Translations under genes and position numbers: made by a program
Shown: piece after piece, positions 42,414-55,063 of the stretch
Layout of the letters: each line of letters starts with the position of its first letter
Position numbering within the stretch: the first letter of the stretch is position 1
Assembly: GCF_000215935.2 (NCBI RefSeq)
Contig: NZ_AFNU02000008.1
Location: forward strand, 62,001-126,000
Length of the DNA stretch: 64,000 nucleotides
Direction: 5' to 3'
DNA from: Haloplasma contractile SSD-17B
GTDB taxonomy: Bacteria > Bacillota_I > Bacilli_A > Haloplasmatales > Haloplasmataceae
The notes under the pieces: model-generated
Told to the model about the DNA's origin: nothing
What the model saw: the letters and a program-made list of their open reading frames with translations, nothing else
Databases searched by the model: none

Positions 42414-45400
42414 ATGGAAGAACATAATTCTAAACAGGAACTTAATCATCAACAAATATTCAAATCTGAGTTAAGAAAAATGCTCAATAAAGGGGCACTT
42501 AATCAACAACAGTACGAAGCTATTTTACATCGTTATGAACGCACATATAAGGAACCCAATCATCATAAAGAAAGAACAAAAGAACAGAATGATGGTCAGG
42601 ACGCTACTCAATTAAGTACAAATAGACAATTAAAAGAACAACACGAACATCAGGAACGACACGATCAACAAGAACAACACGAACAAGAGGAACGACACGA
42701 TCAGCATGAACAACACGAACAACAGGAACAACAGGAACGACAAGATCAACAGGAACAACCGACAACAACGGCAGAAGTTACAAAGAGAAAGCATGTGAAC
42801 CCTAAAGATACGTATCAAACGATGTTATTAACAATTGGTGTCTTACTTGTACTATTAGCGGGGGTTGTTTTTGCCACGACGTCCTGGGATGCGTATGATA
42901 ATTTTATTAAACTTGTATTCTTATCATCAGGATCAGTCATTTTCTTCTTAGCTAGCATCATAGCGGAAAAGAAATTGAAAATTGAAAAAACAGGGCTTGC
43001 TTTTTGGAGTTTAGGTAGTTTGTATATTCCAATCCTGTTTCTTGGTATAGGCTTTTTTGGCTTGTTTGGTGACTACTTATCACTACAAGGAGAGGGTAGG
43101 TATCTACTCGGGTTTATTGCTACATTAGTAGCAGCTCCAATTTATTACTATAGTTCCATCAAGTATAATGATATGATTTTCAGTTATGTAACGTTGACCT
43201 GTATATCCTTACTATTTGCGTTCATCGGGTTGCAAGTTTATGAGAATATCCTCTTCATGCTATTAATACTAAGTTCAGTAAATGCGATTAATTTATTAGT
43301 AGGGAAGAAAATCTATAATCAGGCAATTATTAAGTATCTTAATCCATATATATTAGCGAATATGATTTTACTATCTGCTTCTATCGTATTCATTACCAGT
43401 TTTGTAGAGAAAAACGTATTCGGGTTTGTGTTTTATTTGATCATGATTGCTAGTTATATAGTGACTCATTACAAAAATGAGACGATTCATAGTTTATTTT
43501 CGATTTTCTCTGGGATTATGATTACGCTCACGGGTGTTTATGCGACTCATTCATTATTTAGAGTCCTCGATTATGACGTATTAAGTACTCCATACTATGT
43601 AAGCATGTTTGCTATGTTTACGCTGTTCTATTTTGGCCTCTACTACTTCAATCGTCTCGAATCGTTAAAGAACCTAAAGCACCCGTGTTTAATAACAATG
43701 TCTATTGGAATAACTGTCTTATTCGTGTTTAACCTAGTGGAAATGGATGCTACGTATAATACGATTTATCTGTTGATTAGTCTAGGGCTTTCATTGTTAG
43801 TTTATTTACGTGAACAGGCTAATGGATATAAAACTGTATATGGAATTTCAATGTATGTCCTGTATGTTGGAGTCATTTTTCAGTCTTATTTTTCTATTAA
43901 TCAGCATGTAAATATTTCTTTATTCAATTATTTTAATAGCGGCTATATCAGTTTGTTTTTATTAATTTTATTATTACGCCGTTTAAAACAGGACATTGCG
44001 TTCATACATATCAGAATACTACTTGTGTCATTGATCCCACTGCTCTTAGTTACAACAACTTGGGTATATAATAATGAACACTATGTAGGAATTCCATACA
44101 TCCTTATGAACCACATCATCTTATTGACGTGCTTCATTTTATATAATAAGCTATTTAATCCTATACAATATGAGCGTGGAATGATTTTAATAGGAAATTT
44201 TGTTAATATTACGTTTACAGTGTTTTATGTCCTTACACGAATTGAATTTAAGAACGCCCTTGATTTAACGTTCTTAATAGCAACGCTCATTATTTTACTC
44301 GTGTCTTTTGTGTTAAAGAAAGAATGGAGGCTAGTAACGAATCATTACTTATTAGGGTCTCTGTTTATAACGCTTATCTATAACACGCACCGATTTAAAT
44401 TTAATGTATCGCAGTCGTATCTGTACTGGGACTGGATGATCGAGGCTAAATTTGATCAAGCGATTGTTGTTATTAATTTTACCGCCGTAACTCTTGCTTT
44501 AATGATCTTATTAAGGTTGATTCATAAACTCCGTTATACGTTCTTAATCCCATTTGCACTCGGATTAGCGACAACGGTTGTTTACTCATTAGCAGGGGTG
44601 TTGACTCATCACAGCGTATATGACTTTGAACCGATCGAACTTAAAGGAGCAGCTGCATGGATCCAAATAGGATTTGCGTTAATACTGTTCATATTAGGAA
44701 ATATCGTATTCAGACAACTTTACCGAGTGGAAAGTTATAATAAGGATCAGGAGAATTCGACGTTCACAATTCGGTACGATGCCTTGCACATTGATTATTA
44801 TTTCATCTTATCTGTAGTGAATCTATTTGTTGCATATTCATTAGCGGATGGAGATTTCATTACTTTACTGATCATCGATTTAATCCTAGCAGGTTCATTA
44901 TTCTATCAAGTACTAAGAACGAGCAATAAGTTTCTTCATAAGGTGATCATAGCGCTAGGATCGTACATGTTACTCATTCCTTATGGTCGCTTTATAAATG
45001 AAATTATGGATATAAATCATGTTATTTTTGCTGAGCTTATTATAATTCCAATCATTCTAGTGACAGCGTTTATTTGTCAGTGGGTATTTAAAGAGTATAT
45101 AATGAAATCACGTTTTGCTGATGGTGTGATCGTCTTGATTAGTTTAGGGATGTTACTCACTGATGTGTTCCATACGGACGACTTAACAAATGCAATTCTA
45201 TTCTTCATTCTAACTCTTGTGCTGATCGTTTATGGTTATGCGAAACATTATATTGCTTACTTCATAATTGGAGTGGTTTACTTAGCGATTTTTGTTCTTT
45301 ATGAAACAAGAAATTTCTGGACAAACATTCCGTGGTGGGCTTACCTTCTGTTAGCGGGACTTATTCTTATTTTCATTTCAAGTCTTAATGAAATCGAAAA

Positions 45401-48040: not shown

Positions 48041-50305
48041 ATGAACCAGTTAGATGTCAATCACGTAATTAAGAATATAGATCAAAATACTTATAGAAGT
48101 AAGGAGGGGCTTGCTAACTGTCTCAAAATTTTAATCGATTTAGACGTTTCATCCATCCAGTTTTTTGAACAAGAAGTCGAGTTACTGGATGCAATTGATA
48201 GTATTGTCTCCGATGAAGAGAAAAAGGGACTGAGTGTTAACCATATTTTAAACAAGTTGAAGACACTTAAGGTAGAACTGGCTAGCCACTTGCATGACAA
48301 ACTTGGTGATGAATCAGAGGATGCTTATTTAAATGAAATCCTTAAGGCGATTAAATTAAGGTCTGAAGGAAGGGTGTTTGAGACTAATCCAGAACAACTA
48401 GATTCGTTAGCAGATGAAGACATTAAGAATCCGTATATTGATCTTCGTAGACTATTTCAGCTTATGTTTCATGCTATACAGAAGAACAAAGCAGACGGTG
48501 TTTTGGACGATCATTCCATAGTAATGGATTCCATTCAAGATGATAATACGCATATGTTTAAAGCTTTTCTTACAAATGGAGAATTAAACATTTATGCTGA
48601 GAACTATTTTCGTGAAAATCTTTTACATCATGCGGCATCAATTAACTCGCATAAAGTATTTGATGTGCTTTTAGACATGGGACTTGATTTAGAGCGAACG
48701 GACTACTTTTTAGAGACCCCTTTACATAAAGCAATTGTCAACAATTCAAGTGAGGTAATCGACTTAATCTTAGATGAACGTCCGAATCTTAATAAGCAAG
48801 ACAGTCGTGGTAATACTGTTCTTCATATTGCATGTTTGAAATCAGAAGTGAGTCTCATTAAACGCCTACTGGGACAAGGTGCTAAATTAACGGTTAAAAA
48901 TAATGAAGGTGAAACACCTCTTCACTTTTTAATTGTGAATGACCGTGAAGATGTGATAGAAGCCTTAATGGAAGATGGTTATAAGATTAAGAAATTAGCA
49001 AAAAAATTCAATCTGTATCAATCGGTAGCCATTCACAATGCGGTTAAGGTATTTAAACTGATGCAAGTCTACAATTTTAAATTAAAGAAGAAAAATAAAG
49101 AGAGTTACTCACCGCTTCACTATGCAGCCTTTTATGGAAACTACGAGATTTTAAAAGAACTAATTGATGCTTCACTTGATCCGAATCATAAATCTAAAAA
49201 GAAACAAAATATATTACACAGTGCGACATCACATGGCGCCAATCATAATCTTGAAATAGTTAACTTACTTGTGAAGAACATAAACGACATAAATGAAACC
49301 GATCACTTAGGATTAACGGCATTACATAGTGCTGTTACAGGAGATTCTGTTGAAATTTGTGAATGCTTAATAAGACATGGTGCGGATGTAAATGCTTCTT
49401 GTCCTGAAGGAATAACGCCCTTACATAATGCTGTTTATGGTGGAAACAAAGAAGTAATAAGGCATCTTGTAGAACAGGGTGCGAATCTAAATGCGAAGAC
49501 CAAGGAACATATAACGCCACTTTTTAATGCGGTTGCTCGAGGAAATAAGGAAGCTGCAGAACTCCTTCTTAACGCTGGGGCAGACCCGAATGCTAGGGTT
49601 AAAGAGACAGGCATGACCCCACTTAATAATGCGGCTGTGTTAGGGAATACAGATTTAGTAAAGGTGTTAATTGAACAGGGAGCTGACCCTAATTTAGCAA
49701 GTTTAAATAAAACGACTCCCTTTATTAATGCAACGTTCAAGGGGCATTTTGAAGTTACTAAACTCCTATTAGAACATGGTGTTGACGTTAATCAGGCTCA
49801 CCCTGATAATTTAGCAACGGCATTACATAACTCTACTTCAATACAGAGTTATGAATTGACTGAGCTTCTAATTCATTACGGTGCAGACGTGAATAAACGA
49901 ACCGTTACAGGGATTACACCACTAAATAATGCAGCAATAAGATCGAACTACGAAATAGCAAAATTATTACTCGAATCAGGAGCTAATCCTAATATTGCTA
50001 GTCTTTCAGGCGGAACGCCTATTATTAACGCAGCCGATAAAAGTAATATAAAATTAATTGAGCTCTTTTTAGATCATGGTGCTAATATAAATGCCAAAAC
50101 AAAAGAGGGAATAACGGCCCTTCATAATGCCACAGCAAATAATAACTATGAATTAACAAAACTCCTACTAGAAAAAGGAGCAGATTCCTATATTAAAGCA
50201 AAGTCTAGTGTTACAGCTTATGACAATGCCAAAATTATAAAGTCAACGAAACTTATGGATCTCATTGTTGAATATAGAAAAAAACAGCACAATAAAAACA
50301 AATAA
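48041..50305 (+). CDS. Ankyrin-repeat protein
   Basis: The 754-residue protein lacks a signal peptide. Residues 1-190 form a helical N-terminal region of unknown type. From about 195 to the end there are some 15-17 ankyrin repeats of about 33 residues, with the classic pattern G-x-T-x-L-H-x-A and L-L-x-x-G-A-D-x-N (for example GLTALHSAVTGDSVEICECL, GITPLNNAAIRSNYEIAKLL). Many repeats have 'NNA' or 'HNA' where 'HxA' is usual. Such arrays bind partner proteins. The partner and any secretion are unknown. It is a single-gene unit. Confidence 0.92.
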   Translation: MNQLDVNHVIKNIDQNTYRSKEGLANCLKILIDLDVSSIQFFEQEVELLDAIDSIVSDEEKKGLSVNHILNKLKTLKVELASHLHDKLGDESEDAYLNEILKAIKLRSEGRVFETNPEQLDSLADEDIKNPYIDLRRLFQLMFHAIQKNKADGVLDDHSIVMDSIQDDNTHMFKAFLTNGELNIYAENYFRENLLHHAASINSHKVFDVLLDMGLDLERTDYFLETPLHKAIVNNSSEVIDLILDERPNLNKQDSRGNTVLHIACLKSEVSLIKRLLGQGAKLTVKNNEGETPLHFLIVNDREDVIEALMEDGYKIKKLAKKFNLYQSVAIHNAVKVFKLMQVYNFKLKKKNKESYSPLHYAAFYGNYEILKELIDASLDPNHKSKKKQNILHSATSHGANHNLEIVNLLVKNINDINETDHLGLTALHSAVTGDSVEICECLIRHGADVNASCPEGITPLHNAVYGGNKEVIRHLVEQGANLNAKTKEHITPLFNAVARGNKEAAELLLNAGADPNARVKETGMTPLNNAAVLGNTDLVKVLIEQGADPNLASLNKTTPFINATFKGHFEVTKLLLEHGVDVNQAHPDNLATALHNSTSIQSYELTELLIHYGADVNKRTVTGITPLNNAAIRSNYEIAKLLLESGANPNIASLSGGTPIINAADKSNIKLIELFLDHGANINAKTKEGITALHNATANNNYELTKLLLEKGADSYIKAKSSVTAYDNAKIIKSTKLMDLIVEYRKKQHNKNK

Positions 50306-50314
50306 TAAACAGCT

Positions 50315-50354
50315 AAACAGTGAGAGCACATAAGGTGTAGTTCACTGTTTTTTT
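50315..50354 (+). terminator. Terminator after the ankyrin gene
   Basis: AAACAGTGA at 50315-50323 pairs with TCACTGTTT at 50342-50350, ending in a run of seven Ts. The arms resemble the terminator near 45475. Confidence 0.8.
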
Positions 50355-50460
50355 GTCTGAAAGATTATTTAAAATAGAGGACATGTATTGTCGTGAACTA
50401 GAATATTTATTATAATAGTAGAATAAACAAACTATATTAGGAAAAGATAGGGGTTCTTTT

Positions 50461-51177
50461 ATGAAAAAAATCGGTTTATTTTATACAGTAGTACGAATTA
50501 CAATTGGTGTTATGTTTATATTAAATGTAATAGGAATTTTTTTACTAGATAACGATAGTCAACAGAGTCGATTAGTATTTAATGCAGTTCAGTCGCTACT
50601 TTTATTAATCGTGACCATTTTACCTGGACTAATTGAACGTAAATTTAAGTTAAACATTCCGGACTTTATGGAAGTGATTTTCATCATCATGTGTATCTTT
50701 CACTTTATTTTAGGTGAGATTGGTGAATTTTACATTCATGTAAAATGGTGGGATTCGATGCTGCATACATTATCAGGGTCAATGATTGCGATTCTTGGTT
50801 ATTCACTTGCAAACTCTATTGATCAGGATCATAACCAAAATAAGTTAACGCCATTTTTTGTTTCTTTATTTGCAGTCTGCTTTTCAGTGACGATTGGAGT
50901 TGTATGGGAGGTTGCTGAATTCTTAGTAGACGCTTTCGTAGGAACGAACATGCAACGTTATTTAATTTCTGATACACTTGAACCCTTAGTAGGAAGAGCT
51001 GCCCTTGTAGATACCATGAAAGACCTAATCTTAGATACATTAGGAGCAATCGTGATCGCTATAATTGGATTCATCGATATGAAGAATGGTCGCGAGGCAT
51101 TTAAAAACTGGATTTTAAGACGTGAACCAGAGTCATTAGAAAGTAAGTCTTATATACCGGATGCTAAAGCAAGTTAA
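50461..51177 (+). CDS. Polytopic membrane protein, DUF2238/YjdF-like
   Basis: The 238-residue protein has about six membrane helices. Its polar signature residues lie in GEIGEFYIHVKWWDSMLHTL followed by SGSM, then VWEVAEFLVDAFVGTNMQRY, and DTMKDLILDTLGA. These Glu, His, Trp and Asp positions within helices look like those of DUF2238-type proteins. Function is unknown. The pattern of conserved acidic and His residues in the membrane hints at metal or proton handling, which is speculation. Confidence 0.65.
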   Translation: MKKIGLFYTVVRITIGVMFILNVIGIFLLDNDSQQSRLVFNAVQSLLLLIVTILPGLIERKFKLNIPDFMEVIFIIMCIFHFILGEIGEFYIHVKWWDSMLHTLSGSMIAILGYSLANSIDQDHNQNKLTPFFVSLFAVCFSVTIGVVWEVAEFLVDAFVGTNMQRYLISDTLEPLVGRAALVDTMKDLILDTLGAIVIAIIGFIDMKNGREAFKNWILRREPESLESKSYIPDAKAS

Positions 51178-51519
51178 TGAATCTGAAAATGAATTTAGAT
51201 CCTAGTATTTAGAAATAATGTAAAGAATTACATACAATTATTTAGAACAATATATATAAACGCACATACTAATAGTTAGAAATAATGTAATATAGAGATT
51301 TACTTAGTTAAAAATAGACTCTCATACTCATAATAGAAAGTATAATACAGAGATTTACTTACCAGTAGTTAAAAATAGACTCTCATACTCATAATAGAAA
51401 GTATAATACAGAGATTTACTTACCAGTGGTTAAATAAAGATTTTCATACTCATAATAGAAAATGTAATACAGAGATTTACTTACTAATAGTTACAATAAT
51501 GTAATACAGAGGTGTTAAT
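51178..51519. other. Non-coding stretch mostly made of tandem repeats
   Basis: The 342 bases between the membrane protein and the patatin gene are taken up largely by the direct repeats listed separately. No terminator is clear after the membrane protein. Confidence 0.6.
51270..51512 (+). repeat. 60-61 bp direct tandem repeats upstream of the patatin gene
   Basis: Three full units start near 51306, 51367 and 51428, with partial units before (from about 51270) and after (to about 51510). Each unit contains TCATACTCATAATAGAAA, then GTATAATACAGAGATTTACT or a close variant. The TATAAT inside each unit looks like a -10 element, and the last partial unit runs into the patatin ribosome binding site. 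Confidence 0.85.
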
Positions 51520-52392
51520 ATGAATGAGGGAACAATGGGAACAGAAATAGAACGATATGAAACTGCACTTGTTGTAGAAGGTGGCGCGATGCGTGGCATC
51601 TTTTCAACCGGTGTTATGGATGCATTTATTAAGCATGACTTTAATCCTTTTGATTTATGCATAGGCGTCTCGGCTGGGTCTACGAATTTAGCTGCCTATA
51701 TAGGAGGCATGTTTGAACGGAACTATACAATCTATACGGATTATAGCGTTCGCGACGATTTTATTAGCTGGAAAAAGTTTATACGAGGTGGACACTTAGT
51801 TGACCTGGATTGGATGTGGGATATTTCGATTAAAGAAATGCCACTTGATTTGGAGCAATTAAAAAATTCAAGTTCAGCCTTTTTTATTGGAGTGACTTCT
51901 GTTGAGACGGGAGAACCGGTCTATTTAACACCAACTGAAGATACCATTGCAGATATGATTAAAGCATCAAGCTGCATTCCTATTTTTTATCGAAATACGA
52001 TTCAATTAGATGGTGTCAATTATGTAGATGGTGGTCTTTCTGATCCCATACCCGTTATAGAAGCTTATAATCGTGGTGCTAAAAAAATCATGGTAATTCG
52101 TTCGAGACCTAAGTCGTATATCATGAAACCGAAATCTAGTATGCTACAGAAATTTTTATTTAGAAAGACACCACAGTTATATAAGACACTTAAAGACCGT
52201 GCAAACAGGTATCAGAAGGCAATTGACTTTATGAGGACTGCACCGGATCACGTAGAAATCATCGAGGTAAATCCTCCCGAAACCTTTAAGACCAGTCGAC
52301 TGACTAAGGATAAAGCAATACTTGATCAAGATTACCGCCATGGATTAGAAATAGGGGAAGAACTGGTTAAATCGTGGAAGAAAGAACTATGA
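51520..52392 (+). CDS. Patatin-like phospholipase
   Basis: The 290-residue protein is a cytoplasmic patatin-fold lipid acyl hydrolase by family. Oxyanion loop GGAMRG lies at residues 21-26, the nucleophile Ser51 in GVSAG, and the catalytic Asp170 in DGGLSDPI, completing the Ser/Asp dyad. The length matches the bacterial YjjU-like group. A GAGGTG site is 6 bases before the ATG. It is unusual only in being preceded by the 60-bp tandem repeats. The natural lipid substrate is unknown. Confidence 0.92.
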   Translation: MNEGTMGTEIERYETALVVEGGAMRGIFSTGVMDAFIKHDFNPFDLCIGVSAGSTNLAAYIGGMFERNYTIYTDYSVRDDFISWKKFIRGGHLVDLDWMWDISIKEMPLDLEQLKNSSSAFFIGVTSVETGEPVYLTPTEDTIADMIKASSCIPIFYRNTIQLDGVNYVDGGLSDPIPVIEAYNRGAKKIMVIRSRPKSYIMKPKSSMLQKFLFRKTPQLYKTLKDRANRYQKAIDFMRTAPDHVEIIEVNPPETFKTSRLTKDKAILDQDYRHGLEIGEELVKSWKKEL

Positions 52393-52415
52393 TAACGAAT
52401 CGTGACATAAACTAT

Positions 52416-52452
52416 AGTGGACCGTACGATCATGTATCGGTTCACTTTTTTT
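52416..52452 (+). terminator. Terminator after the patatin gene
   Basis: AGTGGACCG at 52416-52424 pairs with CGGTTCACT at 52438-52446 (one G-U pair), followed by seven Ts. Confidence 0.75.
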
Positions 52453-52612
52453 AATAGCACTAATAGGAAAAATATACCAAACCGTGGTACAATGGGATAT
52501 AGATATAGTAGATAAACGTATTTATATAAGTAGAATCTTTAATTAGATTAGGCATGGATTATTATGGACTATAAGTAACGGTTTATAAACTATAATGAAT
52601 GGAGGATAAACA

Positions 52613-55063
52613 ATGGGAATTAGTGAGATTATTAGTAAAATGACGCTTGAGGAAAAGGCATCTTTATGTTCTGGAAAAGACTTTTGGCGTCTTAAAGAAA
52701 TTGAACGATTAGACATACCATCCATCATGGTAGCGGATGGCCCCCATGGACTTAGGAAGCAAGCAGGGGAGAGTGATCATGTAGGGATTAATAATAGTCT
52801 ACCGGCAACTTGTTTTCCGACCGCTGTAACTACGGCGAGTTCATGGAATACAGAGTTAATGAATGAAATTGGAAAAGCATTAGGAGAAGCATGCTTACAA
52901 GAAGGGGTATCCGTTATTCTAGGCCCTGGTATGAACATTAAGCGTTCGCCACTTTGTGGTCGAAACTTTGAATACCTATCAGAGGACCCTTACGTAACGG
53001 GTAAAATGGCTAGTGCTTTAATAAATGGTGTTCAGTCAAAAGGAATAGGAACATCGATTAAACACTACGCTGTCAATACACAAGAGAAACGCCGTATGAC
53101 AATTGACTCTGTAGTGGATGAAAGAGCTCTAAGAGAAATTTATTTAGCGGGCTTTGAAACAGCAGTTCGTGAATCTCAACCGTGGACTGTGATGAGTGCG
53201 TATAACTTGGTAAACGGAACTTATGCCAGTGAACATAAGACGTTATTAACAGATATCTTAAGAGATGAATGGAAATTTGAAGGCATAGTGGTAACTGATT
53301 GGGGTGCTTGTAACGATCGTGTAGAAGGTTTAAAAACAGGACTAGATCTTGAAATGCCATCATCAAAGGGAGTAAATGATCAAAAAATAATAGAGGCGGT
53401 TAAAGAGGGTACATTAAGTGAAGCCGTATTAGATCGGACGGTAGAACGTATTCTGAACCTTGTTTTTAAGTCGCAGGAGAATAAGCAGGCGTATACGTAT
53501 GATGAAAAGTCGCAACATGATTTAGCTAAAAAAGCTGCTATTGAATCGATTGTCTTAATGAAAAACGAGAACTCAATTTTACCCATCAGCCACACTTCAA
53601 GCATTGCCGTAGTTGGTGATTTCGCAAAACAGCCTAGATATCAGGGAGCAGGGAGTTCACTGATTAAGCCAACTAAACTGGATACGATTTATGATGAGTT
53701 TAAGCAAAGGGAACTTACATTTAATTATTCGAAAGGGTACGAACGAAACAATGATGATCCGAATGAAGCACTGATTAAAGAGGCATGTGAGAATGCAATG
53801 GAAACTGATGTGGTATTGCTCTTTATCGGATTAACGGAATCGTATGAATCGGAAGGGTTTGACCGTGACCATTTACGAGTACCAGAATCACATCGTGTAT
53901 TGTTAGAGCGTTTAAGTGAAGTGAATGAAAACATTATCGTCATCTTATCAGGAGGATCGCCGGTTGAAATGCCGTGGTTAAAGCATGCTAAAGGTTTAGT
54001 GAATAGTTACTTAGCAGGTCAGGCAGGGGCGCCTGCAATCGCTAAAATTTTATTTGGTGAGGTAAATCCATCGGGTAAATTGGCAGAGACCTATCCTATT
54101 CAATTAGAGGATCATCCATCTTATCATTACTTTGCTAAAGGACCATTGACGACTGAACACAGAGAAAGTGTTTATGTAGGGTATCGGTATTTTGATACAG
54201 CCAATAAAGAGGTATTATTTCCTTTTGGATATGGACTTAGCTATACGACATTTGAGTATAGTGATTTAACTGTTTCAGAGGAGTCAATTACGGATTCAGA
54301 ACCTGTCAAGGTTAAGGTCACAGTTAAGAATACTGGGCAAATGACTGGAGCAGAGGTTGTTCAATTGTATGTGAGTGATGTGGAATCCACTATTTATAGA
54401 CCCGTTCAGGAGCTAAAGGGATTTAAGAAAGTATACCTTGAACCGGGTGAAGATCAAGTAGTAGAATTCGAACTAACTAAACGAGCATTTGCGTATTACA
54501 ATGAAAACATGAATGATTGGCATGTTGAGAGTGGGGAGTTTACTATTCTCATTGGCTCATCATCGCGAGATATTAGACAAAGAGCTACGATTTATGTAAA
54601 GTCAAGTCAACCTGATGTAAACGTTCCTGATTACAGGGAAACTGCACCAACGTATTACAAACTAACTGACAGTGAATTTACAATTGAAGACTCAGAATAT
54701 CAAGCTGTTTATGGGAAAGAATTACCTGCATCATCGTATCAAAAAGGCGACAAGTTTACGATGACCTCACCTCTAGAAGATGTGAGAGCAACCTTCTTTG
54801 GAAGAATTGTGTACAATGCTGCCGTAAAAGAACTTAAAAAGATGACCGGTGGCGCGGATTCAAATCAAGCACATGAAAACTTGCAGGTTAGAATGCTTGA
54901 AGCTGTGGTAAAGGAAATGCCGTTCAGGTCGCTCGTAACAATGAGTAATGGAGCAGTATCACCTGCTAAGGCAAAGGCATTATTAAAATTAATAAATTGC
55001 CAGTATATTAGAGGGTTAATAGGTCTAATGAAGGTATCGTTTAAGAACCGAAAAAAGAAATAA
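52613..55063 (+). CDS. GH3 beta-glycosidase (beta-glucosidase type)
   Basis: This 816-residue protein has the full GH3 layout: barrel domain (about 1-290) with VADGPHGLRKQ and KHYAVNTQEKRR, the nucleophile Asp229 in VVTDWGA, the alpha/beta sandwich (about 310-520), and a fibronectin-III-like domain (about 570-660, GYRYFDT to DVESTIYRPVQELKGF). About 100 extra C-terminal residues are rich in Lys and helices and have no family I recognise. No signal peptide is present, so it acts in the cytoplasm, probably on beta-linked gluco-oligosaccharides. It is distinct from NagZ: it lacks the KHFPGHGDT loop. Confidence 0.92.
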   Translation: MGISEIISKMTLEEKASLCSGKDFWRLKEIERLDIPSIMVADGPHGLRKQAGESDHVGINNSLPATCFPTAVTTASSWNTELMNEIGKALGEACLQEGVSVILGPGMNIKRSPLCGRNFEYLSEDPYVTGKMASALINGVQSKGIGTSIKHYAVNTQEKRRMTIDSVVDERALREIYLAGFETAVRESQPWTVMSAYNLVNGTYASEHKTLLTDILRDEWKFEGIVVTDWGACNDRVEGLKTGLDLEMPSSKGVNDQKIIEAVKEGTLSEAVLDRTVERILNLVFKSQENKQAYTYDEKSQHDLAKKAAIESIVLMKNENSILPISHTSSIAVVGDFAKQPRYQGAGSSLIKPTKLDTIYDEFKQRELTFNYSKGYERNNDDPNEALIKEACENAMETDVVLLFIGLTESYESEGFDRDHLRVPESHRVLLERLSEVNENIIVILSGGSPVEMPWLKHAKGLVNSYLAGQAGAPAIAKILFGEVNPSGKLAETYPIQLEDHPSYHYFAKGPLTTEHRESVYVGYRYFDTANKEVLFPFGYGLSYTTFEYSDLTVSEESITDSEPVKVKVTVKNTGQMTGAEVVQLYVSDVESTIYRPVQELKGFKKVYLEPGEDQVVEFELTKRAFAYYNENMNDWHVESGEFTILIGSSSRDIRQRATIYVKSSQPDVNVPDYRETAPTYYKLTDSEFTIEDSEYQAVYGKELPASSYQKGDKFTMTSPLEDVRATFFGRIVYNAAVKELKKMTGGADSNQAHENLQVRMLEAVVKEMPFRSLVTMSNGAVSPAKAKALLKLINCQYIRGLIGLMKVSFKNRKKK

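What the first reader, a model, noticed from the sequence alone, without database searches (positions are those of the whole stretch)
51270..51512. 60-bp tandem repeats that each carry a -10-like box before a patatin gene
Three full and two partial direct repeats fill the upstream region. Each unit holds TATAAT, so the array might act as a chain of promoters, as regulator-binding iterons, or as a variable-length expression switch for the lipase. The array is not CRISPR: units are contiguous with no spacers.
Basis: seen in the sequence. Interest (0 to 1): 0.5.

Follow-up and report, generated by a model that had tools for sequence, protein, structure and literature searches.

The report
Minisatellite array before a patatin gene
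A 61-base stretch repeated about three times sits just before a lipase-like gene in an AT-rich Haloplasma-family bacterium; it looks like an ordinary tandem-duplication array and not like a chain of promoters.

Summary
The array is real: three contiguous 61-bp units (51305-51487; two identical, the third 85%), flanked by short degenerate copies (51266-51304, 51483-51519), with older traces back to 51199. The last copy holds the ribosome-binding site of the patatin gene (ATG 51520). The claim that each unit carries TATAAT is wrong: only units 1 and 2 do; the other three copies read TGTAAT. A promoter model trained on 611 upstream regions of this genome gives the array a best score of 2.2; 92% of those regions score higher, and 98% of the array's own shuffles score at least as high. 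The array is promoter-poor, against a chain of promoters. It is single-copy in the genome and absent upstream of the two same-family patatin homologues. A similar array (35 bp x 5) lies at the 3' end of another gene in the same genome, so such arrays are not tied to promoters. Best reading: a minisatellite grown by slippage or unequal recombination in the spacer/leader between a membrane-protein gene and patatin. Copy-number variation and any effect on expression are untested. One oddity: the sense strand is unusually unstructured as RNA (z about +3; p 0.05 when repetition is kept in the null). New member of a known kind; low interest.

The parts
51305..51365 (+). 61-bp unit 1 (TATAAT at 51341)
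51366..51426 (+). 61-bp unit 2, identical to unit 1 (TATAAT at 51402)
51427..51487 (+). 61-bp unit 3, 85% identical (TGTAAT at 51463)
51266..51304 (+). short first copy (TGTAAT at 51286)
51483..51519 (+). short last copy with ribosome-binding site AGAGGTG at 51508-51514; its first five bases overlap the end of unit 3 as drawn by the repeat finder
51199..51265 (+). older degenerate copies (51199-51231 clear, 51232-51265 weak, p 0.023)
51210..51238 (+). best promoter-like site in the spacer, weak (TAGAAA-17-TACAAT), upstream of the units
50388..50416 (+). promoter-like site of the upstream gene (TTGTCG-17-TATAAT, score 10.6)
50461..51177 (+). upstream gene, 238 aa, apparently a membrane protein, no Pfam or NCBIfam match
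51520..52392 (+). patatin-like phospholipase gene, 290 aa (Patatin + DUF6363)
52416..52446 (+). hairpin followed by a T run after patatin, likely terminator (loop too large for the consensus scan)
   Evidence: not found

Best explanation
The array is a minisatellite. A leader segment of about 35-40 bp next to the patatin ribosome-binding site was duplicated in tandem; a 61-bp unit arose from diverged copies and was itself copied, the last time recently (units 1 and 2 are identical). The duplications are shown by the sequence. Replication slippage or unequal recombination as the cause is inferred. The array most likely lies in transcribed DNA, as spacer or leader between the 238-aa gene and patatin, and supplies length but no promoters; any effect on patatin expression is probably small (inferred).
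For: Copies of graded divergence in one place. Array occurs once in the genome, and not before the patatin homologues of the two same-family genomes that have one. Promoter-poor by a genome-trained model: best score 2.2, 92% of 611 upstream regions higher, 98% of own shuffles at least as high. A comparable array (35 bp x 5.1, score 295 against 315) sits at the 3' end of another gene, including its stop codon, so arrays arise in this genome without regard to promoters. In both arrays the gene-proximal copy is the most divergent.
Against: The patatin array has the highest score of the 9 mostly non-coding arrays found in 1.24 Mb and lies directly at the translation start, which is where a functional array would lie. 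The sense strand is unusually unstructured. The halves of the 61-bp unit do not align directly with each other (p 0.87), so the fusion origin of the unit rests only on resemblance to the flanking short copies. Slippage and copy-number change were not observed. Transcription through the array was not measured.
Confidence: 0.7

Rival explanations
1. Chain of promoters: each unit carries a -10 box and starts a patatin transcript, so more copies give more expression.
For: Two exact TATAAT boxes 61 bp apart; 58-bp promoter repeats with an effect on expression are described in M. tuberculosis (PMC12817950, section 12).
Against: Three of five copies lack TATAAT. No -35 at proper spacing and no extended -10, which this genome favours. 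Best score below 92% of upstream regions and 98% of shuffles. Consensus scan finds fewer sites than chance. The models cover only the main sigma factor.
Confidence: 0.06
2. Unstructured leader: the array is transcribed, and its lack of RNA structure, with length set by unit number, keeps the ribosome-binding site open and tunes translation.
For: Sense-strand z +2.88 and +3.0, opposite strand +0.58; of 160 sampled upstream regions only the array itself exceeds +2. Upstream gene's promoter scores 10.6 against 5.7 at most in the spacer, and no terminator was found between the genes, so read-through is plausible.
Against: With repetition kept in the null, p is only 0.05. The segment around the ribosome-binding site itself (51440-51540) folds as expected, z -0.10. 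The pirin-side array shows no such effect (z 0.12 on the transcript strand). No expression data.
Confidence: 0.1
3. Iterons: the units are binding sites of a regulator of patatin.
For: TAATAYAGAG is kept in five copies, TAGTTA in most.
Against: No further copies in the genome beyond control level (4 of 7 matches with up to 3 mismatches are the array; reversed-pattern control gives 6); unit 9-mers not broadly enriched in intergenic DNA; no inverted repeat in the spacer. Young tandem copies share sequence without function.
Confidence: 0.08

Closest known systems
Promoter tandem repeats of Mycobacterium tuberculosis (lpdA 58 bp, cysG 54-56 bp; PMC12817950, abstract and section 12 read)
   Same: Unit length of 54-61 bp, a few copies, immediately upstream of a gene (12-29 bp there; here the last copy runs up to the ATG), imperfect copies.
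   Different: There the unit is called a promoter element, copy number varies between strains and within cultures, and expression effects are reported. Here the unit has no recognisable promoter, and variation could not be tested.
Intergenic tandem repeats of Mycoplasma hyopneumoniae (PMC5179023, abstract and first third of Results read)
   Same: Tandem repeats in 5' regions of an AT-rich relative of the Bacilli lineage (kinship recalled), diverse in sequence without a common motif.
   Different: Most repeats there are short simple ones; expression differences are reported by qPCR.
Short-repeat phase-variable promoters (nadA TAAA, hifA/hifB TA; PMC3899988, passages read)
   Same: Repeats upstream of a gene whose number can change.
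   Different: Units of a few bases that shift the spacing of known promoter or repressor sites; nothing of the kind is shown here.

Membership tests
Minisatellite / VNTR-type intergenic tandem array | Contiguous head-to-tail copies of a unit of roughly 10-100 bp | tested here: met
   61 bp x 3.1, 92% matches
Minisatellite / VNTR-type intergenic tandem array | Copy number differs between strains or clones | not testable with these tools
   No second genome of the species was found
Promoter tandem repeat (M. tuberculosis type) | Unit contains a working promoter element | tested here: not met
   By prediction only: array scores below 92% of 611 upstream regions
Promoter tandem repeat (M. tuberculosis type) | Unit number changes expression | not testable with these tools
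   No expression data
CRISPR array | Repeats separated by unique spacers | tested here: not met
   Spacing equals unit length
Iterons / regulator-binding repeats | A protein binds each unit | not testable with these tools
   Only indirect: unit single-locus, no inverted repeat
Dispersed repeat element (MITE or similar) | Copies at other loci of the genome | tested here: not met
   One place in the genome at E<=0.001

The most novel reading that the evidence does not exclude
The array is a transcribed, selectively unstructured leader whose variable unit number tunes translation of the patatin lipase: an expression dial that works through mRNA structure and not through promoters.
Probability: 0.08. 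Interest if true: 0.45.

Novelty: new member of a known kind. Interest (0 to 1): 0.15.

Why it matters
If copy number proved variable and affected patatin levels, it would add an expression dial in a little-studied family (Haloplasmataceae). Otherwise it is a useful warning that a duplicated TATAAT in AT-rich DNA is no evidence of promoters. The array could serve as a strain-typing locus.

Tried and rejected
Dispersed repeat family: BLAST of the array against its own genome gave only itself at E<=1e-3. Against 21 genomes at E<=10 it gave, besides itself, short AT-rich matches; the best outside hit (G006, E 4.9e-4, 82% over about 50 bp) lies between two genes that I take from recall to be fusA and tuf, and is not an array. 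The 9-mers TAATAGTTA and TACTAATAG looked enriched (z about 5), but 0.6% of 19,054 intergenic 9-mers exceed z 4.7 and the contexts of TAATAGTTA share nothing visible, so I dropped this.

Arrays upstream of other patatin homologues: 2 of 80 loci (L065, L129) carry an unrelated array of score 60 or more in the 800 bp before the match; 406 relatives were found and only the best 80 were kept by the tool. No Rfam family reaches its gathering score in the window. A first promoter model without the extended -10 put the array near the middle of its shuffles (46% as high) and 376 of 612 upstream regions above it; the second model, with the extended -10, gave the stronger result. I relied on the second and state both. 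The RNA comparison included the array region itself among its 160 regions, as one search showed; the comparison is therefore with 159 others. Papers: searches (the last returned none); I saw no paper on this array in the listings shown, and do not claim there is none.

Full report
What is there. The spacer between a 238-aa gene (50461-51177, apparently a membrane protein) and a patatin gene (51520-52392, PF01734 plus DUF6363) contains a tandem array. Three 61-bp units lie at 51305-51487; units 1 and 2 are identical, unit 3 is 85% identical. A short copy precedes them (51266-51304) and a short copy follows (51483-51519). The last copy contains AGAGGTG five bases before the ATG, so the ribosome-binding site is itself part of the repeat family. 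An older copy is recognisable at 51199-51231 and a weak one (p 0.023) at 51232-51265. The best self-match is 98 at lag 61 against a maximum of 15 in 200 shuffles. The inner part of the 61-bp unit resembles the first short copy (0 of 1000 shuffles as good), the outer part does so less strongly (p 0.011); the two parts do not align with each other (p 0.87). The reading of the unit as a fusion of two diverged short copies therefore rests on the flanking copies alone.

The -10 boxes. TATAAT occurs at 51341 and 51402 only; the other three copies have TGTAAT. The general consensus scan finds one promoter-like site in 51170-51560, at 51210, upstream of the units, against 3.1 expected. I trained a model on 611 upstream regions from 1.24 Mb of this genome (patatin region left out); it converged on a TTGACA-like -35, mostly 17 bp, and an extended -10, with 37% of regions above the 95th percentile of shuffles. 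By this model the array's best score is 2.2; 92% of the 611 regions score higher and 98% of its own shuffles score at least as high; the TATAAT boxes score 0.3. An earlier model without the extended -10 was neutral (46% of shuffles as high). Of 267 spacers of 200-450 nt, 3% are as poor as the array. The upstream gene's promoter-like site scores 10.6, no terminator was found by the consensus scan in 50250-52650, and a hairpin with a T run follows patatin at 52416-52446. Co-transcription with the upstream gene is plausible but not shown. The models are predictions and cover only the main sigma factor.

Dispersed or conserved? The array occurs once in the genome. The 238-aa gene is found in 6 of the 7; in three of these (L180, L183, L184) the frame that follows looks like a glycerol kinase (motif recalled, untested), not patatin, so the junction that carries the array is not shared with those three. 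No match in plasmids or phages, none in viral contigs for the 20-base core.

Background. In 1,239,325 sampled bases of the genome (36%), TRF at score 60 or more lists 27 arrays after merging, 9 of them mostly non-coding by a crude ORF call. The patatin array has the highest score of the 9 (315). The second (295; 35 bp x 5.1, L041:15510-15688) lies at the other end of a gene: it begins in the last codons of a gene that I take from recall for a pirin and continues beyond its stop. In both arrays the copy next to the gene is the most divergent and the far copies are the most alike. Growth by slippage or unequal exchange, with selection only on the gene-proximal copy, would leave this pattern (inference). 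A two-copy 37-bp duplication lies at the 3' end of the 238-aa homologue in G003 (L185:2147-2220).

RNA. Read as RNA, 51245-51560 folds worse than all 100 shuffles (z 2.88; 3.0 for 51270-51519), the other strand does not stand out (0.58), and none of 159 other sampled upstream regions exceeds z 2. Repetition itself widens z, so I also shuffled one unit and repeated it: 5% of such arrays fold as weakly. The segment around the ribosome-binding site folds as expected (z -0.10), and the pirin-side array does not show the effect (z 0.12). This is a hint only.

Conclusion. The best-supported account is a minisatellite in a transcribed spacer or leader. Shown: the tandem copies, their graded divergence, uniqueness in the genome, poor promoter scores. 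Inferred: slippage or recombination, transcription through the array, near neutrality. The closest described kind is the promoter tandem repeats of M. tuberculosis with units of 54-58 bp (PMC12817950, section 12), from which this differs in lacking a recognisable promoter in the unit and in having no data on variation. The finding is ordinary, with one small oddity (the unstructured sense strand).

Noticed in passing
L041:15510-15688 (G000:C8:35510-35688): A 35-bp x 5.1 tandem array that starts in the last codons of a gene (pirin by recall) and runs past its stop codon towards a hairpin with a T run.
   Followed up: partly
L145:17861-17989 (G000:C1): A 59-bp x 2.2 array just before a gene with a ribosome-binding site 3' of it; unlike the patatin array it is strongly structured (z -2.83).
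   Followed up: partly
L185:2147-2220 (G003): A 37-bp two-copy duplication at the 3' end of the homologue of the 238-aa gene, the same side as the patatin array but unrelated in sequence.
   Followed up: no
window 42634-42767: A coding array of GAACAACAC-type repeats (9/18/36-bp periods), giving a repetitive protein segment.
   Followed up: no
window 48041-50305: A 754-aa protein made largely of ankyrin repeats two genes upstream of patatin.
   Followed up: no
sampled intergenic DNA of G000: TGNTATAAT words are among the most over-represented intergenic 9-mers (TGGTATAAT 31 against 5.2 expected): extended -10 promoters seem common in this organism.
   Followed up: partly
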